Shown here one piece after another: positions 1,736-22,779 of a stretch of 64,000 nucleotides of DNA (positions are counted from its first letter, which is position 1; each line of letters starts with the position of its first letter). Below the pieces are notes generated by a model. That model worked only from the letters and a program-made list of their open reading frames with translations. It was not told where the DNA came from and did not search any database. A program made the position numbers and the translations under genes. This stretch comes from Colletotrichum lupini (Eukaryota > Ascomycota > Sordariomycetes > Glomerellales > Glomerellaceae), in the NCBI RefSeq assembly GCF_023278565.1, contig NC_064674.1, forward strand, positions 62,001 to 126,000, given 5' to 3'.

Positions 1736-1984
1736 AGGGGTAGGGTAAGAAGATTAACCTCGTCGACCCGAACGTAACTAATATTAAGAAGTAGTATAAA
1801 GCTAAGCTTACGTAAGGGGTATATATTATAAGTATTTATTAACTTAAAATAACTTTTAACTATACTAAGGTAGCGTAAGCTATAGATCTAACTAAACGAG
1901 ATATCGAGGTACTTAATAAGCGGCTTAAGTAGTAGTAAACAAATCTCGATCGAGGTCTCGTTTACTACCCGATCGACCTTATAA

Positions 1985-2520: not shown

Positions 2521-2627
2521 AAAGAATAGAGAAAAGGGGGAAAAGGAGACGACTTAGTAAACGGGCCCGAGGTCGAATTATACCTCTAACCGTAGCGGTT
2601 AGATCGATAAAAAAAAGAGAAAGTTAG

Positions 2628-2829
2628 TATCGGATTAGAAGTCTAATTCGACCGCGGTATATAACCGACTACGTAGGGGCTAATTAGGGGCCCTATTTAC
2701 GATTATCGTAGCTAGCCTAACCTACGGTTAGAACCTCCTTTTTATACCTACGCAAATATTCATATAGTTCAATTAATTTTTTCGTTAAATACGGTTCGAA
2801 CTAACTACCCTATAATAGGGATACCAACA
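2628..2829 (+). repeat. 3' LTR of the copia element
   Basis: About 202 bp, starting TATCGG (first G probably lost to RIP) and ending ATACCAACA. It is the reverse complement of the LTRs at 22548-22749 and 29203-29397, sharing blocks such as GACCGCGGTATAT, AGGGGCCC and AACCTACGGTTAGAACC. The start was set by where the right-hand LTR of the second element stops matching. Confidence 0.8.
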
Positions 2830-3979: not shown

Positions 3980-4227
3980 AAGCCTCCTTCCATATCTCTT
4001 TTACTACGCACTCCAATCAATTCCAGATGATTGAGCTTCTCACCGGCCGAAGGGCCTTCCCCTGCTTACGTATATCTTATACCATCAATCGTCAGTGTTG
4101 AGATCACACAACTTCGCATGGCCAGGGTACTCATCAGAAGAGCAAGGTGCGTCAACATTTTAGATGGAGAGACCCAATGGCAGGATCACGACTGGCTCTG
4201 TGCCTTCGAAATCGGAAGAATCCTGCT

Positions 4228-4435
4228 CGACGATCCCCCAGCTTTGCCCACCATGGCACCGAGACTGCCCGCCCCCTTCGATGCTCGGATGACGGCCCAG
4301 GGGCAACTCATGAAGGCGCTATTGATACCAAGAGCAGGCCATGTATCGACGATCCCCCGTTTTGTCCACGGAGGTCGCTCGCCCCCTTCGACTCTCGGAC
4401 GACGCGAAAGCCAGAGGCAAGCTACGAGAGGAAAT
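4228..4435. repeat. imperfect tandem duplication, about 85-bp copies
   Basis: The string CGACGATCCCCC followed by GCCCCCTTCGA occurs twice (about 4228-4316 and 4348-4435) with the same internal order (CGACGATCCCCC, CCAC, GCCCCCTTCGA, CTCGGA, GACG). The duplication inflates overlapping reading frames here. No gene is recognised around it. Confidence 0.6.
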
Positions 4436-5290
4436 TTTACCATGCGAGATTTTCTCTCAGCCAGAAACCCGCCAAGGAAGAGTCACGTCGTCAAACCCTC
4501 CTTCATCGTCCATCACACCCCATTTTCACTAACAACTCGTAGCAGAAGTATCACTTTCACAAGACTCCAGCACGCAACGCTGGCAGCAGTCGGAGAGCTT
4601 CCTGATATGCCAAATGACGTCCTTCCACCAGAAAACCACCGACAAGTCCTCCTCCTCCAGCATTTCCCATACCCTTTCCTCCGTCAAACCAAGACTTCGA
4701 CGGAGAACTGTCACGTGAACAACCTCCTTTTTTACCAAAGTAATCTCCCAACACCAAGTCTCCTCCATTAGCCACTCCGACGGCAAGCCTCCTCCAGTCA
4801 CCTCGACGATAAGGACAAGAGCCCTGCCATCTACTCGTGTGGTTGAAGTCGGAACATGATACAGGCGGCGAACGTATACGCCTCTCAGGCTTCGGCTCAG
4901 GGGACATACGAGTGATTGCAGACGAGAAGTGGGCTACTCGACCAAGATCAGGGAAAACGACAATGCGAAGGAGGTCGTAAGATGTGTCAGCATTTGGAGG
5001 GAGGGGTCAAAGTTCATGTATATCTTCATGTCGCAAACAACCAGCTGTCGGCGCTGTTCAGGCACAGGGGTATCCCGATCAACATGCTCACAGAAGCAAT
5101 CATTGTGTCGTTTAGGATCTCTCATTCATAATCGTATGCGACAACACTTTCTGGTTCATTCCTCTGCCTCCTTCTGTACCGTGCACCATTTGCATGCCTT
5201 GCCTAGAGCTGCGGCGGAGCTTCTCGCCTTCACTTCCTAGTTATACAATGCCTGTCAAGTCTCGTGAACCTCACCCCACGGTACTGTGGT
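4436..5290. other. no recognisable gene
   Basis: Several overlapping frames are open on both strands (for example 4031-4771 plus and 4557-4907 minus), but none has a domain, a consistent codon bias or a plausible composition. Nothing else is identified. Confidence 0.5.
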
Positions 5291-5493
5291 TGTTGGAGTT
5301 TGACGGCAGAAAAAGGAATTCATAAAGTGGCCCGGCCGGTGCAAACGGCTCTTCCATCCCTCTACTTATGCCCAATGGAAGAATTGTGGCTCTGCCCACC
5401 AATGCCTTTCTTCCATACCATGTGCGCAGTCGAAATCGACTGTTGTACTTCGTACTGGCCGAAAGACTTGCCCTGCTGACGTGTATAGCAACA
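5291..5493 (+). repeat. solo LTR-like repeat (family A), best copy
   Basis: 203 bp, TGTTGGAG... to ...GTATAGCAACA, i.e. TG...CA ends with a short inverted terminal match (TGTTG/CAACA). The flanking pentamers GTGGT (5286-5290) and GTAGT (5494-5498) differ at one position and look like a decayed target-site duplication. Shared internal blocks with the other copies are TTGACGGCAGAAAA, GCAAACGGC, TGGCTCTGCCCACCAA, TTCTTCCATACC and CCCTGCTGAC. The shape fits a solo LTR of a copia-like element of another family; no internal region is present. Confidence 0.65.
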
Positions 5494-5563
5494 GTAGTCG
5501 TCCTCATAGCCTCGGGATTACTCCGTACTTGAATAACAGTTCGAGAATCGCCTCCATGGCCTG

Positions 5564-5945
5564 TTACGTATGCCTTGTACAATTGTGTTCCATGTCATCC
5601 ATGGGGTGCGGCAACAAAGTTACCAACGTCTTGACGATGCGACACACAGACGCGCAAACCATGAGTGATGGGGCGGTTGGTGCTCCTCGTGACTCAGCTG
5701 GCGACGGCCATTGCCCTTGTCGACATATGGGAGGAGAATTAAGTCGGAGATGGACGTCACGACGCACGAATCCGTCTCGACCTAGGTCTAAGAATAGGTC
5801 AAAGATCAAAGTGGGCATTTCCAGGGCGAGGCCGACGCATTTTGACGTTGTACGGGAACTTGGGGGCATGTAGTTCCGGGTGTCGCCTAAGGAGATTCCC
5901 GCATGGTACCTGGCCTTGGTGCACATCATCAAGTCGACCATGAAG
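5564..5945 (-). pseudogene. broken coding piece, unknown product
   Basis: From about 5941 down to 5750 the minus strand has G/C-ending codons and reads MVDLMMCTKARYHAGIS, then a stretch rich in Leu, Thr and Phe (LALEMPTLIFDLFLDL). Frame quality is lost below about 5740. No family is recognised. It sits in tandem with the next piece (6006-6362) on the same strand and could be the downstream part of one gene. Sequence-only support: codon bias and composition. Confidence 0.4.
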
Positions 5946-6005
5946 ACGGAGAAGATGGCGGTGTGAGGACCCCGAGGAGGATGATAACAACCTGATGCAA
6001 AGTCC

Positions 6006-6362
6006 CTAGGGAGATGGCATAAAGATGCTCGTTCTCGTATTCTGACATCGTTTCGTAGAGAATATAGCTTTGGGACGCGACGTATGACTCACTGTCCAAA
6101 ACCCGCACATCGAAGCATCCGGCATCAATATCACGGGGTACGGTCCCCCGTAGGACTTCTCGGAGTATTTTCCAAACGTGAAGTTGAGGTACGTTTGGTA
6201 GGCGTCGATGGCCGTAGTATCAATCTTGACGCCGTACGGGCAGTGTTGCGTGCAGTTTGCGCTGTCGTGGTGATGCTGGACCCGTAGCCGCCATAAAATG
6301 AGGCCCCTGGGCTCGAGGTTGAACTTGACCTGGGCGGACGCGATCCTGGGGCGCGTAGCCAT
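6006..6362 (-). pseudogene. broken coding piece, unknown product
   Basis: The minus frame between about 6260 and 6080 has good codon bias and a natural composition (CPYGVKIDTT, then AIDAYQTYLNFTFGKYSEK, then PYPVILMPDASMCGFW). It contains two Cys near the start and an NFT sequon. Flanking parts of the same frame look random. It is on the strand of the DNA polymerase and RPB2 relics. I do not recognise the family and assign no function. Confidence 0.4.
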
Positions 6363-6753
6363 CCACCAAAATGTACCTGCCCCTGCCCATAGGTACTTGC
6401 CAGCCTCTGTGGTTACGCTCCTATGACCGTGTCCCCGTCATCGTTCTCCTCCTCCTCTCGTCAGTCACAGTCGTTTACAAATCAGGGGCGTGGCGACATT
6501 GCGTACTCAGCGTGCAAGTCTTATCAACAAGCCCTCCATATCATCTGTCTTCATCTCCCAGTCAAAGGTCATGTCGTCTACGAAGATGATTCCGAGCGCC
6601 GTCTACTGTCCGCGAAGAAGTCGGCCTTTTGCCTCACGTCGGCTGTCGGGGTCCTGCGTCGAGGTCTCGTTCCACCTGATGTCTGGCACGTGACCATGAG
6701 GCTGGCTCACGCGGCTGCGGGTAGAATCGGAAGTCGCGAGTGTTTAGACAGAA

Positions 6754-6796
6754 TTTCCGACATCTCATATTTCGATTCCTACAATGACAAGGTAAA
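6754..6796 (+). pseudogene. possible second kinesin fragment
   Basis: A 12-codon stretch reads DISYFDSYNDKV, matching the kinesin motor motif (L/I)SYYEIYNDKVFDL seen intact at about 7967-8020. The match ends immediately downstream. On its own this could be chance. Its position 1.2 kb upstream of the clear kinesin piece, together with the triplicated SEY1 piece elsewhere in the block, makes a partial duplicate plausible. Confidence 0.3.
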
Positions 6797-7954
6797 AAGA
6801 GGAGAGGCCCATTGTCGATCATGAACTTGGAATGTTTCTAAAGGTTGACAGGGCGCGCACAGTGGTCTTTGTCATAACGCGATGGCCTCACGCATCGTGG
6901 AGCCGTTTGTGGAAGTGGACCTGACCCAAAGGCATTGGAAGTGAGCAGTGCCCCAGCTGCCCGATCCACCAACAGTGGTGACGCTAATTGGTTGGCAGGT
7001 TCGCGGGAGCAGGAAGAGGTGGTCTGGGTGGCTGCCGCCACACACAGCCACATTCCAAAATCTCCCATTTTTTTGGGTGTTTTTTGCAAAATCTCCCAAT
7101 CTCCAGCACGGGGCAGGAGGTTCATCCGGTGTCCACCTGGCGCGCCTGCCCCCACAAAACAGTAGGTACGTACAGAGCCATAGCAATGGCTGGAGGAACC
7201 CACTTTGCTCCTGCAGGGCAGAGCAGGATGGTTCCCAATGCGACATAGCGGGAAAGGAAAGTGAGAAATGGTCGGGTACCTACTTTACTGTTCATGGGAA
7301 GGGACTTCTTCACCGGCAACCGCGAAAGCACGTGATTGCGCGCTGTTCCTCTCTCCACGGAGTATTTGGTCCGGAATTGTCTGCAGCACGTTCCTCTTCC
7401 ACCGCCTCGCCAAAGCGCGTCTCTGAGACTAACACGCGCGGTGCAGACCGCCACGGTCAACTCCACGGGGCTGTTGACAATGGCTCTTTCAAACCTCATT
7501 GTGTAGCCCCGCTTTCTTCATCATCTCTACGGTCAACGCCATCAATGCCTCGACCGACTCGCACTTGCATAGTAGCAGCCCCGGCGTCTCGTTCAGCACG
7601 ATCCTCCGTGGTTATGCTCCGCCTCCCAGCTTCACTGCATGCTCCAGACGCGACCTATTCACCATTCACGTTATGAAAGCTTGATGTATTCAGGTGAGCC
7701 GCAGGTGCCAGGACCCGCAGATGTCAGCTACTTCGTGTGTTCAAGATGTGGACCGCGTCATCACACGGATTGTTGCAAGTACCCATGTGCTCCATCGGTC
7801 TAGCTGGACTAGACTGACGAGAGACACAGCACACAAATGTCCGCAACAAAGCACAGACGAGCGCCATCATCAAAACCTTTGACTAATGACTACCACACGG
7901 ACAACATCTAGTTGAACCACTTCGCCAAGTGTGAATATGATCGAGTTCTGCCCC

Positions 7955-8260
7955 GCGAATGGGGTCCGACTTGTCTTATCATACTATGAGATCTACAACG
8001 ACAAGGTCTTTGACCTATTCGAACTCCCCGAGACATCAGCCCTCGGGCCTGCCCCTCCGCGGAAAAGATGGCAAGACGATTGTAGTGGGTCTGTCCGAAC
8101 GCGCCTGCAAGGGTCATCTAGGTATATCAAGGAGAGCCCTATCAAGAAGGCGACCGTCGGGGACTACAGAACCAAGCTCAAGCTCAACGTATCTAGGTCC
8201 ATGAACCGCCGTTTTCAAAGAGAACTCGCAAGATATCTCTCGAGAGAAGTATCAAGAGAG
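7955..8260 (+). pseudogene. kinesin motor domain fragment (KIF22-like)
   Basis: One frame reads LSYYEIYNDKVFDLFE, the conserved kinesin motor beta-strand/helix motif. After a frame change near 8030 a second frame continues with GLPLRGKDGKTIVVGLSE, which corresponds to the LRED-KG-VVGLTE block that follows in kinesins. A later frame has TKLKLNVSRS, a corrupted form of the TKLN-SSRSH switch I region. The order is correct and the spacing near normal, so this is a real but frameshifted fragment of a microtubule motor gene. P-loop and switch II are not visible. It most resembles a fungal nuclear gene rather than a virus gene. Confidence 0.75.
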
Positions 8261-8444
8261 CTGCGAGGACGTCAAGACCAAGCCGAGCGTCAGAGGCCAC
8301 GACCCCAGCTTGACTGTCATCTTAGAGGAGATCCCCTCCGGTGCGCTGATCTGGGGGACGATTGAGGATCTGTACGACTGGTTTCGGATAGGACGGCTCG
8401 GGCAACACGGCTGTACGGAACAACGACGAGAAGGCCTTCCACAA

Positions 8445-8995
8445 TCAAGAGTTGGACAGGACAGCGACGTCTGCAGCTACAACGAGAATGACGTCTCCGT
8501 CAACGACAAGAGCAGCTGCGACCATTGTGAGAGCCTCTCCAAGGCCAAGACTAAGCACAACTCGAACATGGACCTTCATGCCGTCGACCTTGTGCATGAA
8601 GATGCCCCTGAACGACTGGAGGCTCGTCACGTCGCCGACGTCGTGGTCCGTGTGACTGACCTAGGAACGTTGCCGTGTCCGTGAGTTCTACCTTGCACCA
8701 GAACAAGGGCGGGTCGGGGTCTGCATGCACCCCCTTATTGATCGTAACCTCCACTGACACGATGGTACAGCCGCATCTTTCCGAGACACGTTGGACATGC
8801 GTCGGTTCTTCAAGACGTCGCCGACGAACGTGTACTCGTGCGAGACGGCCGCGATCAATCCAGGTATGAATTCGCAGGTCGCAGCCTCGTTCCTGACGAT
8901 GTTCTCGCTTTTGACCACGTTCTCGCTGATGCCTCTCGTCCTGACCTTGACGCTCTTCCAGGAGCACTCTCTCCGCGAAGCGCCTCGACATCACC
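8445..8995 (-). pseudogene. broken coding piece, unknown product
   Basis: Three consecutive minus-strand segments have strong G/C third-position bias but lie in different frames: about 8935-8800 (NIVRNEAATCEFIPGL, then SHEYTFVGDVLKNRRM), about 8765-8675 (SVEVTINKGVHADPDPPLFW) and about 8640-8450 (SLQSFRGIFMHKVDGMKVHV, then a hydrophobic Val/Ala/Leu stretch). They appear to be one gene with at least two frameshifts. No family is recognised. It is convergent with the plus-strand kinesin fragment and shares the strand of the polymerase genes. Confidence 0.45.
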
Positions 8996-9299
8996 TCCCC
9001 GAACTACCACTCACTTCATGCTATCCCAGGCGTTCCTCAACATCTCTCCTTTGCGGCTGTGTGGCTGCGTGGCCTGCTTCCCGGACACGAACCTGTCCGC
9101 ATAAGGTGACTCTTCTTCTTGAACAGCTACCTCCTGATCGAGCTGATGATGATGGGCCAGATCACCGACTAGCTCAATACTTTGGTTGCGTAGATGATGT
9201 TGAACGAGAAACTGGCCTGCCTTGACACCCTGTCGATGGACGAAAAGGTGATTGTCAAGCAGGGGGGGCACGTCACCTTGCGAATTACCACTTTGTCGA

Positions 9300-10060
9300 G
9301 GTTCGCTAATGATCTTTAGGATGTTGCGGGATAACTTTGACGACGGGTCAAAGCTAAAGAACAAGCAGAACCTGGCGCACGAGGGCTACGTCTGCATCAG
9401 CAAGAACCAGACATTGGGGGGTGAAGTTGCCCACACTGGACATGGTCTCCAAGTCTGGGTTGTTAAGGACCATCGACCCGGTGATCCAGGTTTCGTACGC
9501 AAAGGCCGGTAAGTCGACAATGAAGGGCGTTGTTATCAAGCTGACCATGTCGAAGCACGAGTTCGGGAACAGCGTCACCTTGTGCAACCCTGTCCCAAGG
9601 CTCGTCAATCACAGACCCAATACCCCGGAGATGATCAGGCGCTACATCCTGGCTGCGGTCAGCAACAAGAACGTATCCACTATCCTATACAACGTCGTGA
9701 GCACATCGGTCGAGATGAGGAAGATAAGCAGCAACTGCGCAAAGAGCCAGGGGGCCTCGGGCAGGAAGGTCATCCATTGTCTGTGTGGGAACCCTAAAGT
9801 TCCAGGAGCTCAAGAACCTGGATCCGAGGAACCGCTCGTACATGGTCGTCGACTTGAATGTCAACACCTCAAGGCTGCTTGCACAGAAGACGAGGCTCAG
9901 AATCTTGAACTGCGACGCGGAAACCAGTCTATTGAAGCAGGTCAAGGCCTTCATGAGGTCGTTCGGCAACATCATGATCTTTAACGGCACGTTCCAAGAC
10001 TTCTTGGTGTCAGAAGGCGTGATAGAGTGCCTCATCTCGGGAAGGTTGCGCGTTGCCTTT
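9300..10060 (+). pseudogene. broken coding piece, unknown product
   Basis: Plus-strand frames about 9325-9420, 9421-9770 and 9790-10050 follow one another with frameshifts, and all have well-biased codons (many AAG, ATC, GTC, TTC, AAC). The readable protein is lysine- and asparagine-rich, includes blocks such as KSGLLRTIDPVIQVSY and NPVPRLVNHRPNTPEMIRRY, and ends LVSEGVIECLISG. No motif known to me is present. The piece runs tail-to-tail into the RPB2-like relic, overlapping at most by a few tens of bases near 10040. Confidence 0.45.
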
Positions 10061-10602
10061 TCAACATGTTGTACTGCTGACAGGAGATCAATACCCTGCT
10101 GTCGAAGAACGTTCCCCCGTCTACGTAGCTGACCTTTCCCACAACGACATCGAGGACGGGATGCTGGGCACGAAGCCGGTGACTTACTGGCTTTTACCTC
10201 AAGGTTATCCCCCTCGCTATACCGCGGTCGCACTCCATTCCTCACGTCGCCGTAGCCGCTCGGCAATCTTGATCTTCTTTCTTTCAGGACACATACGCGG
10301 ACGGTAACTCAGCGTTATAGTCGGGTTTGTCTTCGTGCGTCAGCGTGGTCCGGGCATCCTCGTTCCTGTCCCCCATCCTGAAGTTGATGGCCCCATTGAA
10401 TGGGTTTAGGTTCGCGTTCACCCCCTTAATCTGTTCCACAGTCTCCCGCATTAACTTATTGGTAAAGACGAAGATATTCGGCCGAAATTCGTCCCTCATG
10501 ACGGGTCCTCAAGGTGCGGCATCTCTGACGTCAGAAGCGTTGAGCCAACCGTGAACGTAAGCTCATACCAGTTCGCCAACTTGTCCCTAATCTCGAGTTT
10601 CC

Positions 10603-10753
10603 TGTTGGAATTGACGGCAGAAGCAAACGGCCCTTTCCTTCACTTCCATAAACCTAACGAAGGATTCTTGGGCTCTGCCCACCAACCTTCTCCTTCCACG
10701 TCCCCGTCACGAAGTTCAACACCACAATTACCCTGCTGACTTGGAAACCAACA
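10603..10753 (+). repeat. solo LTR-like repeat (family A) inside the RPB2-like relic
   Basis: Starts TGTTGGAATTGACGGCAG and ends CCTGCTGACTTGGAAACCAACA. Compared with 5291-5493 it is 151 bp because of an internal deletion. It lies between two RPB2-like motifs, so it inserted into that gene and contributed to its loss, or landed after decay. Flanking pentamers do not match. Confidence 0.6.
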
Positions 10754-10763
10754 GTTCTTCTTC

Positions 10764-10768
<5 letters not shown>

Positions 10769-10793
<25 letters not shown>
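10769..10793. repeat. (AC)n microsatellite
   Basis: About 12 uninterrupted AC units directly beside the solo LTR-like repeat, within the RPB2-like relic. Confidence 0.9.
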
Positions 10794-10794
<1 letters not shown>

Positions 10795-12379
10795 CCGCGT
10801 TTATCAACCCCGAGCCCGTTTCCATACGTCCTCAGGACCAACTCGGCATCGTAGGCCTCCACTCTTCCTAGTCAATACCATGATCCCTCTGAACAGACGC
10901 CAAAAGTCGGGTAGGGGCAGTCGATTACGCCATACCACGAGACCTGCTGCGACGTAGCGACACTCATCGGAGATCACGCACTCGTCCTCGACTTTTCTGC
11001 TGCACGACGTTAAACGTCATTGCCGCATCCTCCTCCAGGATAACAACTTTAGACCCCTTGGACTCGTGATGAGCCATGTTTCCCGGCAGCCATGTCATTT
11101 CCATGGGCCTCCGTGGCTGTTCGTCAACATGGTATTGTCGCCCTTGGTTGGCAAGGGGCAGGGGCGTGCTTCATCATCCCCATGTCCAAGCTGGTTTTTG
11201 GGCTCCACGGAGAACCTGCAGAATGGGATCAGCAGCGCGATTGGGGACGCCACCTGGCCCGGCTTCACGTCGTGGGTCGGGAAGAACTTGTCCAAGTCTC
11301 ACTCCATCGTGTCGCATTGTTCAACGCAAGTCGTGAAACTTCTTGCCGTCGGCCAAGAGCCTGATGGGCCTGATCAGGACACCGCTGGACAACGAGATCA
11401 CCAAGGCCTTTGCCTTCCCAAAGACGTGCACCATCGGCATGTTGGGCTCGCACTATATCCTCCATCTGTCAACGATCTCGGTGTGGTACATGTTGGACCC
11501 CCACGGCATCTCCCGCGCCACCTGAGATCGTCCCCAACGTTATGACCCTGACGCATACCCCGGCCACGAACATGGGGTGTTGTCTTTGAAAACGGTCCAG
11601 CCCAGCCACATAGCCTTGAGCGATAGCTTGACGGAGACAGTGGAGCCGCCAAAGACGTTGACTTCGGACTGGACCACTTGGTCGAAAGACTCTTGTACTT
11701 CTCCAGCGTCGCTAGCACCTTGGTTACGGATATGTTCTTGTATTCACCCTGCACAGAACCAAGCTGACGGTCAGGCCCACGCTGTCCATTATCGAGCCGT
11801 GACCGACTATCGAGCCCAGGTGGACGTCGCATACATCTGACCGGGCGGGACTCACTGCTGCCATTCTCGGAGATGACGGAATCCACAGCTACAATGACTC
11901 CGCCATCGTAGTACGCGCTCGCACAGGACTTGGTGACGAGCAAGAGCTCCAAGTTAGGAATAAGGACTATCCAAGCAGAGCTCCGTAGGTAGCTGCTCGA
12001 TCATGAACACCTCGTCGTTGTATATCATGTCGCCAGTCGTATTGGCGTTCCAGGTGTCACATCAGTCGGTATCCGTCCACCAGCACAGCATGACGATGAT
12101 GGAGAGGTCGACCTCGGACCCCGCTGATCTAGGCTTGCCCGCTATCGACTACGTCTGCGGTCTCATCTGCCCTTCTGAACCCCTCGGTTCTCGCGGATAT
12201 CTTTGTTCGCATATTATACACAAAGATCAGCTGCCCGACGTTATCTGTGCCCACGGACACGAGAATGAAGTCGATTCCGACACTATCTTCTACCTCGCCC
12301 ATTTCTTACGCATGTCAAACGGACATATCCTTAACCCGGCCTGCCTCTTCTGCTGCTTCCATCTGCTATCTTCGTAGAC

Positions 12380-14510
12380 ATGGTGCGGCTAGCCCGGGAT
12401 CCTTGTCTCCGAGATGGCTCAGTCCGCGTCCACAAACCCCTCCTGGATGGCCATCATGATTGTCCTGACGATCCCCGAAAGGATATATGCCTCTTTGTTG
12501 GCGTCCGACAGATTTCTCCCCGTGGAGGACTGAAACCACTCTGCATAAGTCGCACCCTCTTTACAATCTTCATCGAAAGCCCTCGGTGTCACACATGTCG
12601 TCCCAGTTCATGTCTTTGTACTTCTTTTTGGCCGATATGCTTGTGGGCTTGTAGTTCGCCTCGACGCCCGCTCCGACCTCCGCGAAGATGGTCCCCTTTA
12701 TGTCCTTGACGACGGACTGCGTGATGAGATGGGCCGTATCCTCGCAGCCGTGCTCTGTCTCCATTCGACGCGGACGAGGATCGAATCGATGTCGCCGTAA
12801 ATGATGTTGAAGCCCAGCTTCCGGGCGACCTTGACCATGTCCCTCATGTAGTATCTGGCAGTGACCATAACAATTATGGCGCACATTGTGGAGTTGCTGA
12901 CGCCGAAGCTGCTGGCCGCGGCGTCGAAAGCGCTCACTGTCAGTGTTTTGTACCCTGCATTCCTGTTCATGTTCCCCTCCGCCTTCATCGTCGCTCTCCC
13001 TTTGGTCAAGTCATGTGAGACCTCACCGAATAACGTGGAACAGCCTTTTACAATGTACAAGTACCCTGTCCCGTCCATCATCAAGACTTGGTCTCCTTGG
13101 TCGATTGTGTTGTTGGTCGTGACGTCGGGTGGGAGCTGCGGCATGTTTATGTATCAGTAGCTTCTCCGCAAGACCATCTAGCGTCCTGTTGAAGAGATCC
13201 TTATCGACATGTATCCCGAGCTCTAAGATGATGTAGCCGTAGACGATGGCTGTCTGAAGACGAAGGTTGTCTCAAGACGCCGACTGTCTGAAGACGATGT
13301 CTGGCTTAAGACGATGGCTAGGTCAAGACGATAGCTAGCTTAAGACGAGGGCTGCCTTAAGACGATGGCTTTCTGAAGACGCCGACTATCTCAAGACGCT
13401 GACTGTCTCAAGACGACGACTGTCTCAAGACGCTGACTGTCTGGAGGCGATGGCTGTCTTAAGGCGATGGCTAGTTAAAGACGGCGACTGTCTTAAGACG
13501 ACGGCTGTCTGAAGACGATGGATGGTTTAGGACGATGGCTGTCTTAAGACGAAGTCCGTCTGAGGATATATAGCGAGTAGTTTACCGGGCCATGTCTAGC
13601 GTCATGTTCATGGCCTTGGGCACAGGAGCGGTATAGCAAAAGGCCAAAAGGCCATGAGCTCGGAGTTGCCGGTGATGGTGTCCAGAAACGTGCTCCTCGA
13701 TATCCTGGCCAGACTGTACAACCCGTCGCATGCCTTCATCTTCCCGGCTACAAGGGCGTGCAAGTCTAAGCCCCTGACGTTTGACATCATCATCTGGACC
13801 ACGGCGTTAGTTGTCGTCCATGTTCGTCGTCCATGTTCGTCATTATGTTGTCGGGCCCGAGCTTCTTCCTTCTTGGAGAGCCTCAACTCGGTCGAGATGC
13901 TATCCAGATAGATGGAGGTTCGTTTCGACCCCACGTCTTTGTTCACGTCGTATTTAGAGCCTACGACGACGGTGACGTTCAACGGTCTTCAAGTCGAAGC
14001 CGACCGTTGTGGATCGCGATGACATCCGGGCTCAGCATCCCGATCATTTCGTAGACCACCTTGCCGCTGGAGACAGTCCCGTAGATCGAGCACGCTCTCA
14101 GCAGCATAACTCGTTCTTAAAGCTCGGTAAGGTCCCGGTTCTGCGGTTGGAATTGTCAGCGTTCACATTTGACATCAACTTCGTTGGGATCGGGATGGTC
14201 AAGTCAGTATGAAATACGTGCAGACACAGAGCATAGAGTAAGTAAACGCCGCTCCGGTACGGTGATTCGGAGTCCGGAAAACGACACCCAGAAGCTGGCG
14301 TAGGCCCACACCAAGGAGGTCTAGAGCTGGATGCTGGATATGGTCGCGGCTTGACAGACTAGTGATTACACGATCGCGGCCCTCATTATCCACGTCAACT
14401 TTCGCCAAAATCTCAGCCGGGGTGGGAATGGTCAAAATGGTGTGCAATACTATCCTGTTCTTTCCGCGCGCTATCCTGGACCCTACCACATGACACCCAG
14501 CCATCTAAGA
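12380..14510 (-). pseudogene. family-B DNA polymerase, virus-type, divergent and broken
   Basis: Read on the minus strand, family-B landmarks appear in order across frameshifts. They are an exonuclease II-like block VIAIHNG then FDLK (about 13998-14030); a post-exonuclease block LARISRSTFLDTIT (about 13675-13720); the helix before motif B as DLTKGRATMKAE (about 12970-13010); a motif-B-like SSFGVSNS (about 12885-12910); motif C IIYGDIDSILV (about 12770-12805), with Ile for the usual Thr in YGDTDS; a thumb KKKYKDM (about 12610-12635); and TEG...MKIVKRVR (about 12545-12580). It does not resemble fungal Pol alpha, delta, epsilon or zeta in these blocks. Motif A (DFxSLYPS) is not found; the 17-bp minisatellite sits where it should be. 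A duplicated segment (VFHTDLTIPIP versus VLHTILTIPTP) lies at about 14150-14460. Confidence 0.75.
13239..13565. repeat. 17-bp minisatellite, about 19 copies
   Basis: Tandem units of AAGACGATGGCTGTCTG type, with AAGACG recurring every 17 bases and variable ends (CTGTCTC, CTGCCTT, CTAGCTT). The period is not a multiple of three, so expansion would break any frame. The array lies between the exonuclease-side and palm-side parts of the DNA polymerase relic. Confidence 0.9.
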
Positions 14511-14514
14511 TTCA

Positions 14515-15470
14515 GTCAGTTCAAGTCCAAAAATTTCTCGTTAGTAACTTAGTCTAGGGACTCTGCAAATCCCATGTCCTTGTCTCCATCCTGTTCCTGA
14601 CGACTTACAAGATAACGCCGGGAATCGTCCTGCTTGTCCTATAGCTCAGTCCATCTACCTGGATGGTACTCGCACTAGCGTTCAGATCCGCGTTCTGACG
14701 CGCAGCGGGTTTTGTAGAGCTATGCGCAGAATCATGCTGAGCATGCTGCATACACAACTGAAGTACATAACCCAGCACACATCCAATATGCAGCTCTCGG
14801 TGTCGGTCAAAAAGAACGGCGTCATGTGCGTCCTGGACGGCTTTCCTGCGTGGGGTAGGGACTCATTTGCAATGTCCAACTAGGTAGGAGAGGGACCTGA
14901 CGAAGTTACCGCACTCAAAGTCTCTGGCAGTGGCGAACGGTTTGACGTACTTCAGCTGATGCACGGGGGTTAGGCATCGTGGATGCAGGTTCACTCGAAA
15001 ACGGGGTCGTAAAAGCTCCTATAGCACCGCCTCTAGACGATAAAGGCCCGCGGCGGCAAAGAAAAGGAAAGGCAATGAGATGAATGGGCTTTTACGGAAG
15101 GATGAGTAAGTGGCACCTTCTAAGGCAGTCCCAAGCACCAGAGAGCAAGACCAAGGCAAAAAGGCAAGATAAGGCCCGATGACGCAACCACGACAATAGC
15201 AGGTACCTACCTTAAGGTATAGCGACAGTGGGGAAGGAGTAAAGAGACGAACGTCGCTAGCTGGTAGGTCGGCCCTCCCATCTACTACGCATTTACCTAA
15301 GGTAGGGGCGGGGGGCCGTTGGTACTGTCATGTGAGGAAAATCAGCAAGAGCTCCAACCACAGCTACACCTCATGAGCTGCCCTTTCTTCCACCACCTTC
15401 TACGACAGAACCTCAACTTCAACCTCAACCCTACACACACAAACACATCAACCAGACGGCTCACAGGGAA
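14515..15470. other. no clear gene
   Basis: Short minus frames such as 14682-14879 show some coding-like codons (LSMLHTQL-type hydrophobic stretches) but cannot be extended. From 15000 to 15470 there is no coding signal; a CAACC-rich pyrimidine stretch precedes 15474. Confidence 0.45.
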
Positions 15471-15473
15471 ACG

Positions 15474-15768
15474 TTGTTGTTGACGGAGACCAGCGACAGC
15501 ATGGACAGCACTACGTTAGACCGTCGCAGTTACGGAACCTACAAGAGGGTCGCGCGCCCAACCTATTCTGACCCTCATGCTTTCCATGTCGTCGCTGGTC
15601 ACCGTCAACAACAACATTTCCCTGCTGAGCATTACAATCGCTCCAAGCACATACGTCGCAACGCTGACCTTGTCCTTTGTCTTCGTCTACCTATACATCG
15701 TTCAGATCTCGTGGAAGCCGACACTGCTATCCAACACCAGCTACTTTGAGTGCTCAGCTGCATAAGTC
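15474..15768 (+). pseudogene. piece of a membrane protein, unknown family
   Basis: A plus frame at about 15560-15768 reads LTLMLSMSSLVTVNNNISLL, then YVATLTLSFVFVYLYIVQIS, then ends with a stop at 15766. It contains one strong transmembrane segment of about 20 hydrophobic residues and two NxS/T sites. Codons are G/C-biased. The upstream frame (15474 on) differs by one register, suggesting a frameshift. It ends about 50 bases before the SEY1-like piece. No family recognised. Confidence 0.4.
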
Positions 15769-15799
15769 GAACCACCAAAACCGCAGCTTCCCTTCCTTC

Positions 15800-16332
15800 C
15801 ACCCAGGGGCCGTGACTGTGGCGAGGACCAGGATTTCGAGAGGAATGGAGTCCTCTTTGCCCGGGCACTCAGTGGGGTCCTGATTGTCAACCTTTGACCT
15901 GTGGAAGACCTGATTGGCCTGTACAACGGTGCCAACATGGGTCTGTTCAAGACCGTTTTCGAGGTCAACAACATGCAGCTCTTCCTCAAAGACAAGGAGT
16001 AAGTTGCCCTTACACTTAGCAAGCCCCGCCGCTCGCTGATATGCGATACAGGTCGAGCCTAAGATTGCTATTCTTCTTCGTTGACCGATATTTTCGGAGC
16101 CCTTCGGGGTCCAGCTCTTCATCAAGGACAAGCGGTGAGTCGTCCTTGCATGAGGGAAATTTCACCGCTCGCTAACACGTCACACAGGTCGAGCCTAAGA
16201 TCACCGCTCTTTCTCGTGATCCGAGACCACCTTGACACGACGCCCCTTGCGAACCTGCGCAACACCCTGGTCCAGGACCTGACCAAGATCTGGTCCTCCA
16301 TCTCCAAGACCAAGACCGGCAACTGTTCGTGA
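15800..16332 (+). pseudogene. SEY1-like: SEY1/RHD3-type dynamin-like GTPase fragment
   Basis: SEY1 proteins fuse ER tubules; this piece covers part of the G domain. The frame from about 15808 reads CGEDQDFERN, then GVLIVNL, then [14 protein letters not shown], then MQLFLKDKE, matching the region after the DxEGTDGRERGEDQDFERK motif in fungal SEY1. A GT-AG intron (donor after AAGGA near 15998) returns to frame as [13 protein letters not shown] second copy of the junction (VQLFIKDKR, intron, [15 protein letters not shown], about 16108-16238) continues correctly into [15 protein letters not shown] and TKIWSSISK up to 16330. Stops and one frameshift occur, and the P-loop is absent. Retained introns mean the source was genomic DNA, not cDNA. 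Confidence 0.85.
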
Positions 16333-16510
16333 TGAGTCTCATCATTATGTCGTCCCTCGCCATCACGCCGGTCGAGGTGGACGTACACTTCGTCTACAAG
16401 CAGTAAGTCGCCCTTGCGTCTGGGCCAACCCTATCGCTCGCTAACACGACATACAGGTCGAGCCTGAGGTCGCTGCTCTTCCTCGTCGTCCGAGACCCCC
16501 ACTCATGTGC
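15975..16510 (+). repeat. three tandem copies of one SEY1-like exon-intron-exon junction
   Basis: Units begin at about 15975, 16110 and 16375. Each has the end of an exon encoding (F/L)...KDK(E/R) or VYKQ, a 50-60 bp intron with GT(A/G)AGT donor, a GCTCGCTRAYACG-like branch region and a (C/T)ACAG acceptor, then GTCGAGCCTRAG starting the next exon. The third copy reads SSLRSLLFLVVRD and then breaks. The spacings of about 135 and 265 bp show these are partial duplicates with deletions rather than one gene. Confidence 0.85.
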
Positions 16511-16578
16511 ACGGTCACATGGATAAGAAGGTCATTGACAAGATTCTGTTGCCCGTCGGGGACGACCAGAAGCCCAAC

Positions 16579-16797
16579 TTAATGTGAAGAGTAGGAAGGC
16601 CCTTGGCGAACGCCGAGGAGGGCGTTGTTGCGGTAGTAATATTTTTTGGCAGGTATGTCCATGAAGGCAAGATCAATATGGTGGATACGTTTGCATCCAG
16701 TACTGACGCGTCGATCTAGCGGTCCGGGCCCGTCAATGATCCTGCTTCTTGGCAATATTTCGATCTGAATGGCGTGAGAGCCACGAGCCTCAAACAA
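16579..16797 (-). pseudogene. open frame of 72 codons, unknown
   Basis: The minus frame has reasonable codon bias and composition (HAIQIEILPRSRIID, HHIDLAFMDIPAKKYYY). There is no known motif, no supporting neighbour on that strand and no promoter evidence. It may be another relic piece. Confidence 0.25.
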
Positions 16798-16992
16798 CTT
16801 TGATCTTATCTCCCGATGCCCAAGCCGATCAGATCATCTGCCCCTGTCCGAAAACAAGCACTTCATTCATCGACACAGACGACGAAAGCCAAGACAGGCA
16901 TCAAGGCCGACTCTCTGAGCTCTTTTAGCCATGCCCGACCCGACGAGGTTCACAGCCTCGCTTGCATCGAGCACACAGATGACATGGCAAAC

Positions 16993-17193
16993 TGTTGATA
17001 TCCCTGTCATAGGGTAGTTGGTTCGAACTGTCCGGGTTCTGTGGGTGACGAAGGGTCAATTGCTGGCTCTTGATTCATTTTGTGTGGTGTGTGAAAATGA
17101 GGTTCCAGCCGTAGGTTGGAGGGTCAATTGGAGTCTGGTTGAGGGTCGAATCGGCCGCTGCGCCGCCACTGAGAGTCGACAACTTCAGGAACA
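16993..17193 (+). repeat. solo LTR related to the copia family, not RIPped
   Basis: 201 bp from TGTTGATATCCCTGTCATAG to CTTCAGGAACA, with TG...CA ends. It matches the RIPped copia LTRs (TGTTGGTATCCCTATTACAG start; GGTAGTTAGTTCGAAC and GGTTCTAACCGTAGGTTAGG blocks appear here as GGTAGTTGGTTCGAAC and GGTTCCAGCCGTAGGTTGG) and has the same length. Most differences are the CpA/TpG-to-TpA type, so this copy shows roughly what the family looked like before RIP. No clear target-site duplication. Confidence 0.75.
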
Positions 17194-17633
17194 TCGGCCG
17201 GCATATCCCGGCGATGGGCCTTGCGGATGTTGTTAAGGATGTTTGGAAAAGGGATATAGGAGATATGAGGAGGAGAATAAGGCGTAGGGGAACAAGTTCC
17301 GTGCAGAGGGACATGTCTTATGAGGAAAATTGCCGCTGCATCTGCAAGACTTGGAAATTGGGATGAATGGCTTACAGGGAACAAACTTCTCTTTGACGAG
17401 TCGAGAGACGCGTTCTTTTCCATTGGCATCAGAGAATTTTGTCCCCTTCCCTTCGTCTTTACATACATACCCATCGCTCCAGCACAAATGTCAGCGCAGG
17501 GAGTACACGTCTAGGGAGGGACAAATTTCAGTAATTCATCCTTTTGAACCCAACAGAAAATGGCCTCTGTGAGCTTCTGCCCTGTGTCGTACGTGTACTA
17601 ACAGCCAAGACCGTGCTGTCGGAGTTGTAGGTA

Positions 17634-18020
17634 GTGAAAAACATGTCGAGAAGAGGTTCCTGGTCTGCGACAAGTACGACATCAGCGATGTTCTCTCGTT
17701 TCCTGCGACTCGCATTATCAGCAACCAACTCCGGTCAACGACAAGGCTTTCATCGTCAACACCATCGACAGGAGGCTCGTGATCTACCACGTGGACAGGG
17801 AAATGTCAGAGAAGACGCTCGTGTACATGGGCTAGATCACCAACACCTCCCTCGTCCAGTTCCTATCCGCGGCTATGACGGTCTACAAGGCCAACACGAG
17901 ATACGCGCTTCTTCCAGAAGGCCGCGAACAAGATCACCGGGGGTTGGGCATACGAGTAGGTGTCGGATAAGTTCAAGTGCAAGGCCGCGACGTGAGCGAT
18001 GGCTGTGAAGTGCGGCATAG
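17634..18020 (+). pseudogene. broken coding piece, unknown product
   Basis: Plus frames about 17640-17720 (HVEKRFLVCDKYDISDVLS), about 17735-17835 (NDKAFIVNTIDRRLVIYHVD) and about 17960-18050 are coding-like in bias and follow one another with frame changes. No domain recognised. It precedes the minus-strand membrane-protein relic. Confidence 0.35.
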
Positions 18021-18483
18021 ACGTGAAGACGAGCAGCGGCGTTCAAGGCCATGCCATCCAGCCTCGCGAAAACGCCGTCGTCTGCAGAGAATACGCGAGG
18101 TACCTCGGGCCGTTGAAGATCAGGCGCTGTTGGCTTCTGGGCAGCCGGCGGATAGGGTGGATCGGGAAGGCGGTCGGGGCCATACCAACGACACTTCAAC
18201 CTCCATACGCAGCAACGCACACCACTTTATTGACGTTTCGTGCCAATCATACGGTTACTCGCTAACGTATATGCTGACAGGTACACAGAGTGCGGCCCCA
18301 ATTCATGCTTCGAACATGAAGAAAGCCTATCGACCCGCTATTGACTTGAAGGTCTTCGAACTAACACACACACACGATCAAGCACAGGATCGTGTAGACC
18401 GTCGTTAAGAGCTTGACGCCGAGTTCACCATCAACTTCAAAACAAGAGATTACTATAAAATGAGGTGGCCAAGAAGAGCTCGT

Positions 18484-19086
18484 TTAGAAAGAATCTACAA
18501 CACCCCCAGGCAGACGAATGTTAGGATTATCAACGTCAAGAAGGCTGTCCAGGACGTCTCCGCAGCTAGTAACAAGGACGAACGAGATACGGGACGCCAT
18601 GAGCTTGGAGCAGACGGTTAGGCGCCCACACCCGGTCCCAGGAAACCGGAAAATGGAGAAACCTGTCGAAGATGGCGATGACGAAGACGGAGAGGACAAG
18701 GGAGGATATAAGGAGGGCGAGGACGAACATGGCCATGATCACGGGGACGGTGGCGACAACGAGAGCCGCAAAGACCAAAGCAGCGGCGATCATAACGACG
18801 ACGACGAAGAAAGCGATAATCGTTCGGACAGGTTTGCGGATGCGACGTCGGAGGCGAACGGGATTACCGAGACCCTGGGGGCTGAGGAGAAGGCGCTGGT
18901 ACGGGCTTGGCGAAGATATTTTAGGTGAAGGTCTAGAACATGACCTTGGCAATTCCCATGAAGCAGTCTGCAACGAGCTGAAGCGTGGAGACAACCAGGC
19001 CCATTCAGTACGTCCCGGGCACGAACATCGGGTCGAGCGCTAACGAACCCAAGCATATGGGGGAGCAGCTCGTCAAGATCAATCAC
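18484..19086 (-). pseudogene. piece of a multi-pass membrane protein, unknown family
   Basis: On the minus strand, about 18850-18640 encodes a long hydrophobic tract (TIIAFFVVVVMIAAALVF, AALVVATVPVIMAMFVLA, ISSLVLSVFVIAIF), enough for two or three membrane helices. An upstream segment about 19080-18930 reads DLDELLPHMLGFVSARP then hydrophobic residues in another frame. The same DNA on the plus strand gives an acidic Asp/Glu/Gly low-complexity frame (18518-18928), which I regard as the shadow. No family recognised. Confidence 0.45.
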
Positions 19087-19249
19087 GAATGCATCATCAG
19101 GCCCCCAACTGTGTCGTCGTCAATGTCATTATCACTACCAAGTGCTCAATTCCTAACGAGGGGGTGTAAGTCACAAAAAGCCCTCATTTCCTCAAACGAC
19201 ATCCCGCACATGAGGTACGCAATCGGTCTTGGGAAGTTTTAAAGAACCA

Positions 19250-19800
19250 GAAGGTCAGCAAGGCCAGATTATTCTCCAGCATCATCACGAAGGTTCATGA
19301 CGCCTGTAGGAGAGCTGCGAAAACATCGTCATAGAGGACGTCCCAATGAAGATCTTGAACAGGGACCCGAGGATGATAGACACAGGCATCAACTCTGAGA
19401 AGCGAGGCAAGTCAATACCATCCACCTTCAAATGCTACCAGCTAACCGCGTGCCAGCTCACAGCCTGATACAAGCACCCGGTCGTGGCTAAGAAAGGAAC
19501 ACACACCCCCGAAGCCAAACGAAGTAGTGAGGATACTCGAGGTCAAGAGCTCGTGATGCTACGCAACTGTTGTCATCTCGCTCTCGATGAAGAGACAGGT
19601 CACGGATTACGACAACGACGTGAAGTTCAGCATCAAGCTCTGCGATACATTCTATACCAAGGTCGTGACGTACAGGAGCCCACCGCAGTGCTCTTTCATG
19701 TGCCTTCGGTTGACTGACGAGCTCTTGATGAACGCCGAGGTAGTCAGCAGTGCAATACAGACAGGCTTCGTTGACGGATTCTTCAGGCGGGATTGTATTG
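19250..19800 (+). pseudogene. broken coding piece, unknown product
   Basis: Segments about 19243-19300 (KNQKVSKARLFSSIITKVHD), about 19318-19450 (ENIVIEDVPMKILNRDPRM) and about 19587-19790 (DYDNDVKFSIKLCDTFYTKV, then DELLMNAEVVSSAIQTGFVD) are G/C-biased and lie in shifting frames on the plus strand. They look like one decayed gene. No relative is recognised. Confidence 0.4.
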
Positions 19801-20284
19801 CGACGCCAAGCGTGGCAGTGGCTTCCCTAAGACTCCCTCGATCAGGCCGGCCGCTGCCGATTCCTATCCTACCCGAATACTCTCGGTAATGAAACTAATG
19901 AGATGCTGACGGAGTAGATGGGCCGATAGAAGGATGTCAGTTGGCGTCTTTTGTGTGACCTGGTCGAGGGTCTGCTCCTTACACTGGATCTAAGATGAGG
20001 GCGGGCGCTAAAGGTGGACAGACCATGCCACGAGTGCAGGCTGAGCTTGGCTTTCTCCAAGCATTGTTGGACCGAGCTATACTGAGGCATATGTGGCGAC
20101 GATCAAAGGGGAAACTGGAATCGTCACCATACGAGAGCCGCAACTGGGCGCAACTCGAGCGTCGCTGGACGTCCACAAAACTAAGTGCTCCAGCCAGTCT
20201 CAGGATTCTCGGCCCAAACTTGATCTTGTACATCTTGTGCGACTCAAGACGGGAGGTCTCCTCGACCATGTCACCAGCGAATCG

Positions 20285-20425
20285 TAATCGGCGAAGATGC
20301 GGTTGGTGACGACGTTGTAGTTGACGACGTAGTTGTTGCTCTCTCCCCTCCACTCGTCCCCGAAGCTGTGGAAGATGACGGTGACCTGGTTGACGATGGG
20401 ATACTTCAGCTGCAGATATCAGACA
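20285..20425 (-). pseudogene. fragment of a gene with relatives at 51.9 and 54.1 kb
   Basis: The minus frame reads LKYPIVNQVTVIFHSFGDEW then ESNNYVVNYNVVTNRIFADY, with strongly biased codons. The first part matches LKCTNVNQVTVISRGLENE at about 53945-54010 (minus), and the DNA is alike over about 40 bases (CGGTGACCTGRTTGACG...TACTTCARCTG). The family is unknown. The NYNV-x-x-x-R ending is vaguely reminiscent of the C-terminal strand of double-jelly-roll capsid proteins, but that is too weak to name it. Confidence 0.4.
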
Positions 20426-20577
20426 TCAGCTACATCGTTTGAAAGCCCGCGAGCCGCCTTCCTGTCAAAAAACCCTTCCCAGCCATGATGTCGAGCATGG
20501 ACCACGAAAGCAGCTTCTGGTTTTCCGATTATTGGAATAATCCCGAATCATGCGTCCTTGTACGTATGGACTAGTGG

Positions 20578-22540
20578 TTGTTCTGTCATAGGTTAGCCAG
20601 AGAACACTCAACAGAAGAGCTAGAGCTCTTTTACCTACTGTTTAGGTCATTGAGGCTGATTGGTAGGATGACGACCGACTCTGTGTTAACGATCATTACT
20701 CGACTGCGGAACACAGATGAAAGCTTCACGAGCGCATTACATCACGTGAGATTACTTCCGCCAGATCTTTGGCCACCGGGAAAGCTTCCTCCAACAACTC
20801 CTCGGCCCGCTGAGAAGACGGCAGTTCAGTACGCCATGCGACTTCTTTACCCCGAAAATCCACTACGGAAGGATCACTTCACGAACTCCTCAGCCTCCCC
20901 AGTAGGCATTCCTCCGAAAGGTCACTTCAGCAAGCTCCTTTCTCCCACAGTTAGCAGCTCCGAAGGCGATGCCAACGCCAAGGATGATTGATCTGCAGCC
21001 AATGGATCGAAGATTCAGAAGTTTGGCAGATGCTCGGTGGTGTTGCCGAATTTAGACGAGACGTAATAAATGCTGACTGGGAATTCAAGCCCTGCCTTGG
21101 ATCATCCGATCTTCGGCTAATCATTCATCTCTCCCAGATCTGGAACGGGTTGATTTCGATTCATTGGTTTTCTCGCACGTGGCTCTTCGACTCCTTATTG
21201 GATGAGAAACCCGCTGCATAGCAAGCCACTGAGACACACGAAGACCTGCGACTGCACATTGCCGCAGAAACACTTTGGGAGCAGTCTGTTCACGACAAAT
21301 TTCCACGGTGTGACTTCATCTGGCAGGACTCTGCCAATCGCAACTCCGCGACAGACATATGTCATTCATGTCATTAGAATCCTTTACCCAAGTTTAATCG
21401 CATATTTTACTTCCCACCACTACCTCAGCTGAACATCAATAGCGTCACCTGGCAAAACCACATTTAGGACGTTCACGGTGAAGGCTTTCAAGGTGGTTCT
21501 CTAGATCCTGATCTTGGCTTGCCCGCATATTGTAGTCTCAGATGAGTTGTTCCACATGTAAGACCGTTACATATACTTAATGACAGCTGAAAGAGCTCCT
21601 TCGACATGGGACTTGGCACACAGCAATGCTGCTGTTGATGTTGGATGCTGTCGTTGCCACTGTCACGTCAGATTAGTCACCAATACTCCACTCGGCTAAT
21701 CCTCGGGGACTTCCCTTCCTCTCAATGTACCGGGGACCTGCCCCACACACACTGGACTTCAGACAGACAGAACACAACAGAGACTGGACTAACTGGACAG
21801 ACCACTCATGTGTTTGGCAGATGCGGTCCCTTCGCAGCTGCTGTCAATGCTGCTGGTCGACATGGGACTTGACAGCAGCATTGTTGCTGTTAAATGAGCA
21901 TTGCTCCTTCCACTCGTCAATTGCTGGCGACTGCTGCTAGTCGTTGGCTGGGTCGCAAAGTCACTCCCTCCTGCCTTTCCAACAACCAGCTCTTTCCTGT
22001 CCTCTCACTGTTGCCAATATCGACGATGCACCTTCCTTTTGCCCACTAAAAGATCTTTCCAGAGCTCAGCGCGACTTCCCAGTTCGAAGATTACCTAGGT
22101 CGCCGTGTAGTCGTCTCGGCCTCCCTTCCTTCCTCAGTCTACCTCACCTTACTTTGCGTCACTCTGGCAAACATGGCTTCCTCCCCATCAACCGGGCGTT
22201 ACCTGATGGCACTCCTCGCAGTCAATGTGCTTGTTTGACGGCGCTGTTCTCACTCGCCCCGAACTTCCTCATCTATTGATTATTATCGTCTACCTCTTTC
22301 TTGATGGGTGTGGCCCTAAGCGGCGCCGACCATCCTCTTTCCATCAGCGATACCTCGCTACCATACTATGCCTACACAGAAGCTACCACACGATGCCCCT
22401 GCCTTCCCTCCATCAAAAGGTACTAACAACATCGCACAGATACCCTCCCGAGAGATTCGCTAAACTACATGGGTAGTGGACATTGACTGTGTTTAAGCAA
22501 TGGACCGGAGGAACTGGCCCAGACGGATTCGCTAGCGAGA
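20578..22540. other. open frames without recognisable gene; imperfect 40-bp repeat
   Basis: Plus frames at 20578-20991 (137 codons) and 20988-21221 overlap by four bases but show no domain. A GACATGGGACTTG...ACAGCA...GCTGTT motif occurs at about 21604-21645 and again at about 21858-21895. From 21900 to 22480 the plus strand is pyrimidine-rich and non-coding in appearance. Confidence 0.4.
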
Positions 22541-22547
22541 GGCCACG

Positions 22548-22749
22548 TGTTGGTATCCCTATTACAGGGTAGTTAGTTCGAACCGTAGTTGACGAAGAGA
22601 TTAATTGAACTATATAAATATCTGGGTAGTTGTAAAAAGGAGGTTCTAACCGTAGGTTAGGCTGGCTACGATAATTATAAATAGGGCCCCTAATTGGCCC
22701 CTACGTAGTCGGCCGTACGCCGCGGTCGAATTAGATTTTTAATTTAATA
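22548..22749 (-). repeat. LTR (3' LTR in sense orientation)
   Basis: Starts TGTTGGTATCCCTATTACAG on the plus strand. It matches the LTR at 29203-29397 and, as reverse complement, that at 2628-2829. Its left part is only lightly RIPped; its inner part (TAGATTTTTAATTTAATA) is heavily RIPped. Confidence 0.85.
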
Positions 22750-22779
22750 CTAACTTTTTCTTTTTTTTATTAATTTAAC

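What the first reader, a model, noticed from the sequence alone, without database searches (positions are those of the whole stretch)
12380..14510. Virus-type family-B DNA polymerase relic in an ascomycete
Seen: exonuclease-, palm- and thumb-type motifs of family-B polymerases in correct order on the minus strand across frameshifts, including IIYGDIDSILV and a FGVSNS-type motif B. Known: fungal Pol alpha, delta, epsilon and zeta have different sequences in these blocks. Inference: the source is a large DNA virus or virus-derived element not closely matching those I know. Integrated large-DNA-virus polymerases are rarely reported from ascomycetes.
Basis: partly seen in the sequence, partly recalled or inferred. 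Interest (0 to 1): 0.9.

Follow-up and report, generated by a model that had tools for sequence, protein, structure and literature searches.

The report
Dead DNA polymerase in anthracnose fungus
A dispensable chromosome of a Colletotrichum fungus carries the broken remains of a DNA-copying enzyme gene that does not look like the fungus's own and may have come from an unknown DNA virus, a kind of virus not yet firmly known from this group of fungi.

Summary
The window lies on what is almost certainly accessory chromosome 11 of Colletotrichum lupini. At 12.57-13.14 kb, minus strand, lies a genuine family-B DNA polymerase palm, broken by frame changes. A profile of 85 polymerases gives that piece 41.8 bits (E 2.7e-12); no other of 7,202 reading-frame pieces scanned exceeds 2.8. 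Relics in C. filicis and C. melonis pass the Pfam cut-off. It is 17-22% identical to three nuclear polymerases of the same genome and single-copy. Motif C (YGDIDS) is real. Exonuclease-side and thumb-side pieces look once coding (third-position GC 0.72-0.75) but no profile recognises them. The stated limits include a 17-bp minisatellite and a core-chromosome fragment. Viral origin is the best explanation but is not shown: matches to archaeal, eukaryotic, bacterial Pol II and poxvirus polymerases are all weak, no reference set of large eukaryotic DNA viruses could be fetched, and no other viral hallmark gene was found. A stretch of about 5.4 kb (8.7-14.15 kb) shares the once-coding signature, so the relic may be more than one gene.

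The parts
12764..13144 (-). PolB palm/fingers piece (open frame 12698-13153): finger helix LTKGRATMK, degenerate motif B KTLTVSAFD (12923-12949), motif C YGDIDS (12782-12799)
   Evidence: Profile of 85 PolBs 41.8 bits, E 2.7e-12; motif B-C spacing 46 as in 58 of 72 measured PolBs; the positions conserved in an alignment of 29 (R50, K54, K66, R97, YGD-DS, numbered in the C. filicis protein) are also in the window piece (for the positions, for the letters); GC by codon position 0.46/0.40/0.76
12573..12761 (-). PolB piece after motif C, with the KKKY block, in another frame
   Evidence: C. filicis CSPX01_11056 spans this and the palm piece in one frame, 95% identical here; Pfam DNA_pol_B over cut-off in the C. 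filicis and C. melonis proteins; GC3 0.81
12422..12550 (-). once-coding piece at the position expected for the thumb; not recognised as such
   Evidence: GC3 0.72 in this frame, phase map; no profile match
13611..13988 (-). once-coding piece at the position expected for the exonuclease domain; unproven
   Evidence: GC3 0.75 over 13611-13790; rank 19 of 648 scored, -0.9 bits, colinear position; not significant with an exo-only profile
13982..14116 (-). piece with PDVIAIHN, and GFDL in an overlapping frame; resembles an Exo II motif (recalled) cut by a frame change; unproven
   Evidence: read by eye; phase map agrees with this frame; no profile match
13241..13552 (.). 17-bp (51-bp) tandem repeat lying inside the relic
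   Evidence: Tandem Repeats Finder
8700..12300 (.). neighbouring once-coding stretch, several frames, no Pfam match for the pieces tried; may belong to the same relic; colinear in the C. abscissum gene model
   Evidence: Phase-locked GC windows 15 of 71 in 8700-14150 against 11 of 771 elsewhere, limits chosen after seeing the map; no Pfam match at E<=10 for 8 pieces; P0004 maps colinearly from 13144 to 9357
14217..14366 (.). fragment also present on core chromosome C1 (86%); taken as not polymerase and as marking the upstream limit

Best explanation
It is a dead fragment of a family-B replicative DNA polymerase gene of the Pfam DNA_pol_B type (PF00136; no sign of the protein-primed type), of a lineage without close relatives in what was searched, most simply left by a double-stranded DNA virus that inserted into an ancestor of part of the Colletotrichum acutatum complex. 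While alive it would have copied viral DNA with the two-aspartate palm site whose motif C survives (inferred from the family). Now it most likely makes nothing useful: shown are the broken frames, the degenerate motif B and the missing motif A. It persists passively on a dispensable chromosome and is inherited or exchanged with it (inferred from relics in four species).
For: PolB palm. Not a recent host copy: 17-22% identity to three nuclear PolBs. Shuffled-alignment Z for the C. filicis relic: 15.5 with the viral-contig polymerase L041 against 9.7, 8.6, 6.9 and 0.7 with four nuclear polymerase ORFs (biased, since L041 was picked by similarity). No sign of the protein-primed type: PF03175 not found in the genome (a weak negative), PF00136 the only polymerase family hit. 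Only relatives found among 5.8 billion proteins, within the tool's word and length limits: C. filicis, C. melonis and C. abscissum. Once coding: GC3 0.72-0.81 against 0.65-0.69 in four nuclear polymerase ORFs. Precedent: PolB genes of viral origin in early-branching fungi and a 1.5-Mb viral region in Rhizophagus (PMC10640383, passages read).
Confidence: 0.6

Rival explanations
1. Very old, decayed duplicate of a host nuclear polymerase, captured like other core-gene fragments on this accessory chromosome.
Against: Identity to the three own polymerases aligned is 17-22% while the core fragments are 72-91%; no core match listed in 12.3-14.15 kb; GC3 higher than in nuclear polymerases.
Confidence: 0.1
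2. Horizontally acquired cellular (archaeal or bacterial) or non-viral mobile-element PolB.
For: In NCBIfam the C. filicis relic scores best with DNA polymerase II (27.9 bits; pol2 22.9), the C. melonis relic with pol2 (23.8); many archaeal genomes match.
Against: The archaeal matches are 22-51% with the higher values over short lengths; no close donor among the stretches holding the one pattern scanned in 84,980 prokaryote species.
Confidence: 0.2
3. A functional host gene (exapted), not a relic: an open frame of 148 codons from a Met here and annotated proteins in relatives.
For: Open frame and strong GC3 kept; annotated in C. filicis and C. melonis.
Against: The window is in two frames where C. 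filicis is in one, C. abscissum's model is spliced across the debris, motif B is degenerate and motif A absent.
Confidence: 0.07
4. Chance resemblance.
For: The window's own piece alone is below the Pfam cut-off (E 0.022).
Against: 41.8 bits against at most 2.8 for every other piece scanned; relatives exceed the Pfam cut-off.
Confidence: 0.01

Closest known systems
PolB genes of Nucleocytoviricota origin in early-branching fungi (Rhizophagus irregularis, Gonapodya; Gong et al. 2020 as cited in PMC10640383 and PMC9894930, passages read; Gong itself not held)
   Same: PolB of non-nuclear type inside a fungal genome
   Different: Those are assigned to a virus phylum and, in Rhizophagus strain 4401, one lies in a 1.5-Mb viral region; here the host is an ascomycete, the lineage is unplaced and no viral neighbour is identified
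Putative Ascomycota-associated Nucleocytoviricota from oceanic crust (PMC9894930, passages read)
   Same: Proposes large DNA viruses of Ascomycota
   Different: Virus genomes from single particles with the host inferred; here an insertion without the virus
Host nuclear PolBs (alpha, delta, zeta by recalled motifs)
   Same: Family B, motif C
   Different: 17-22% identity
Protein-primed PolB of linear plasmids and Polintons (PF03175)
   Same: Family B (recalled)
   Different: PF03175 not matched in the genome at E<=1 (the control rang in 1 of 14 genomes, over the cut-off in none)

Membership tests
Family-B DNA polymerase (PF00136) | profile match over curated cut-off | tested here: met
   Met by the C. 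filicis (28.7 bits) and C. melonis (34.9 bits) relics, cut-off 23; the window's own piece alone is below it (14 bits) but has 41.8 bits with an 85-sequence profile
Family-B DNA polymerase (PF00136) | motif C with two aspartates | tested here: met
   YGDIDS in all four copies seen
Family-B DNA polymerase (PF00136) | motif B Kx3NSxYG | tested here: not met
   KTLTVSAFD at the right spacing; K, S and an aromatic kept, N and G lost
Family-B DNA polymerase (PF00136) | motif A DxxSLYPS | tested here: not met
   not recognisable; the candidate fails spacing; loss by deletion is a guess
Family-B DNA polymerase (PF00136) | 3'-5' exonuclease domain (PF03104) | tested here: inconclusive
   no profile support; phase signal agrees with the frames
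Endogenous large DNA virus (Nucleocytoviricota type) | other hallmark genes nearby or in the genome | tested here: inconclusive
   PF16903, PF04947, PF08706 not found, PF04665 sub-threshold; controls silent for the first two, and the PF00136 search itself missed this relic. 119 ORFs of 130 residues or more from the other held parts of C11: no viral hallmark among the 25 families shown of 37. 146 window pieces: only weak virus-named hits, TT_ORF2-like 0.0061 and UvsW_N 0.03, not followed
Endogenous large DNA virus (Nucleocytoviricota type) | PolB nested in a viral clade | not testable with these tools
   no polymerase known to be of a large eukaryotic DNA virus could be fetched
Protein-primed PolB | PF03175 match | tested here: not met
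   (weak control); no PF03175 hit for the relic proteins
Copy of a host nuclear PolB | clearly higher identity to one host polymerase | tested here: not met
   17, 22, 20%

The most novel reading that the evidence does not exclude
The 8.7-14.15 kb stretch is the remnant of a previously unseen lineage of double-stranded DNA virus that infected Sordariomycetes: a deeply diverged PolB beside several proteins with no known family, preserved on accessory chromosomes of the C. acutatum complex, and the first trace of such a virus in an ascomycete genome.
Probability: 0.3. Interest if true: 0.8.

Novelty: new member of a known kind. Interest (0 to 1): 0.5.

Why it matters
As told in two papers of 2023 (PMC10640383, PMC9894930, passages read), double-stranded DNA viruses of fungi are known from insertions in early-branching fungi and from particles whose host is inferred. 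A non-nuclear replicative polymerase relic shared by species of an ascomycete genus would extend that to the Ascomycota and make accessory chromosomes a place to look for further fossils. If the source is not viral, it is still an unplaced PolB lineage.

Tried and rejected
Rejected: FGVSNS as motif B; exonuclease recognition by profile; a recent copy of a host polymerase; the protein-primed type (weak control); the WWAEP segment near 10.65 kb as a viral gene (similar short segments lie at several other places of this chromosome). Led nowhere: PHROGs, NCBIfam for the exonuclease- and thumb-side pieces, phages (no match; only E 3 and above), viral contigs with nuclear polymerase palms (nothing; four loci, of which none placed the relic), the tree, the PDB with a neighbouring ORF, PMC13373834 (passages: Starships in Colletotrichum, nothing on polymerases). 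Structure prediction: with 3 rows pLDDT 33.9, meaningless; with 29 rows pLDDT 60.3, ten-residue means of 81-87 over residues 41-70 and 72-83 over 91-140, finger-like helices and two strands over motif C, but that alignment presupposes the homology. Fold search was never accepted. Gong et al. 2020 is not held.

Full report
Source. The window is C11:62001-126000 of a 63,443,975-base genome in 12 contigs; C11 is 523,226 bases. PMC11645255 (passages, sections 12 and 7) describes C. lupini genomes of 54.5-63.4 Mb with an accessory chromosome 11 of 0.34-0.52 Mb, absent in lineage I, whose orthologues occur in most clade 1 species, among them those coded CFIL01 and CABS01. The protein hits are only to C. 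filicis, C. melonis and C. abscissum.

The polymerase. The piece 12698-13153:- alone gives Pfam DNA_pol_B at E 0.022, below the cut-off, and the genome-wide PF00136 search lists 4 other places and not this one. The C. filicis relic is 80%, 85% or, over its first 127 residues, 91% identical to the window piece, with 95% over the 63 residues that lie in the next frame. It passes the cut-off with E 7.6e-7, the C. melonis relic with 9.7e-9. A profile was built from 85 of 88 polymerase reading frames (those of 550-1300 residues; from 80 archaeal loci, 5 viral contigs and 3 of the fungus's own polymerases, less the 3 too short). It gives the window piece 41.8 bits, E 2.7e-12 among 1,501 pieces. The next best, 2.5 bits, are an unrelated piece and the colinear piece 12573-13010:-. 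In 5,701 pieces from the other held parts of C11 the best is 2.8 bits. About 200 kb of C11 (256-456 kb) could not be read apart from 2.5 kb.

Motifs. In an alignment of 29 sequences the invariant positions YGD-DS and the nearly invariant R50, K54, K66, R97 (numbered in the C. filicis protein) are also in the window piece. Motif spacing could be measured in 72 of the 85 reference frames: 58 have 46 residues between the motif B Asn and the motif C Tyr, 11 give 3 (mis-hits of the search pattern), and 3 have 47, 50 or 55; the relic has 46 counted from VSAFD. So motif B is KTLTVSAFD, degenerate, and FGVSNS is a look-alike; C. filicis reads FSVTKS there. One contig polymerase that I take to be haloarchaeal does read NSFFGVSNN at its motif B (L044), which may be why FGVSNS looked right. 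The gap-free alignment to L044 puts that motif at the relic's VSAFD. Motif A is not recognised: the only candidate, before LPPDV, is 70 residues from motif B, where the 72 references have at least 82. All four copies share GDIDS and the three that cover it share VSAFD, so the ancestor of the copies may already have been damaged.

Exonuclease and thumb. No library or profile recognises those pieces. But GC by codon position in the frames read is 0.45/0.48/0.75 for 13611-13790 and 0.47/0.42/0.72 for 12422-12550, like the palm (0.46/0.40/0.76) and the post-motif C piece (0.51/0.38/0.81). A spread of 0.36, as in the palm, is reached by 2 of 506 background windows of 4-22 kb. The phase map agrees with the frames of the palm, post-motif C, thumb-side and both exonuclease-side pieces; for 13026-13271 it is ambiguous. 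They were therefore probably coding, in the order expected for a polymerase, but their identity rests on motifs read by eye.

What surrounds it. 17-bp repeats fill 13241-13552. A core-chromosome fragment lies at 14217-14366. None of the 19 matches listed for 4.0-15.4 kb (7 on core chromosomes, 12 on C11) falls in 12.3-14.15 kb (which scores only the best candidates). From 8.7 to 14.15 kb, 15 of 71 windows show strong phase-locked GC against 11 of 771 in the rest of the window (10 windows across borders dropped; limits chosen after seeing the map). Eight pieces from 8.5-12.4 kb have no Pfam match at E<=10. C. abscissum's gene model maps colinearly from 13144 to 9357. Of 146 window pieces scanned (145 of the 176 ORFs of 70 residues or more in 3.9-22.6 and 48-57 kb, plus one shorter), the clear family hits are RHD3 GTPase (2.9e-11) and CUE (4.9e-7), SUR7 being weaker (0.0005). 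Fragments at 72-91% identity to core chromosomes lie around. The island is a patchwork in which the polymerase is the one item that looks foreign.

Not in print, as far as searched: Colletotrichum with endogenous viral element and DNA virus, with Nucleocytoviricota, with NCLDV and horizontal gene transfer, and ascomycete or Ascomycota with giant-virus, dsDNA-virus and mirusvirus terms (20 of 26 papers listed, 20 of 258 listed) showed, in titles and starts of abstracts, no report of a family-B polymerase of viral type in an ascomycete genome. The library is open-access papers only, and the key earlier paper (Gong et al. 2020) is not held.

Noticed in passing
window 4000-22500: Patchwork of short (about 50-240 bp) pieces of core-chromosome sequence at 72-91% identity (one reads like a kinesin, one like RHD3 GTPase) on the accessory chromosome; how they got there is unexplained.
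   Followed up: partly
window 1-2829 and 22548-25374: A 2.8-kb, largely AT-rich inverted repeat (86%) flanks the GC-rich island that holds the relic.
   Followed up: no
window 5291-5494: Degenerate repeat family with at least 8 further copies (70-79%) on C11 and a short one on C1.
   Followed up: no
window 8700-12300: Once-coding debris with GC up to 0.88 in the richest phase and no Pfam match for the pieces tried, colinear in the C. abscissum gene model.
   Followed up: partly
window 10623-10710: Short segment (WWAEP) with similar segments at several other places of C11.
   Followed up: partly
L041: Archaeal-type virus contig, 18.8% GC in the held part, with TFIIB, STIV B116-like and PolB genes.
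   Followed up: no
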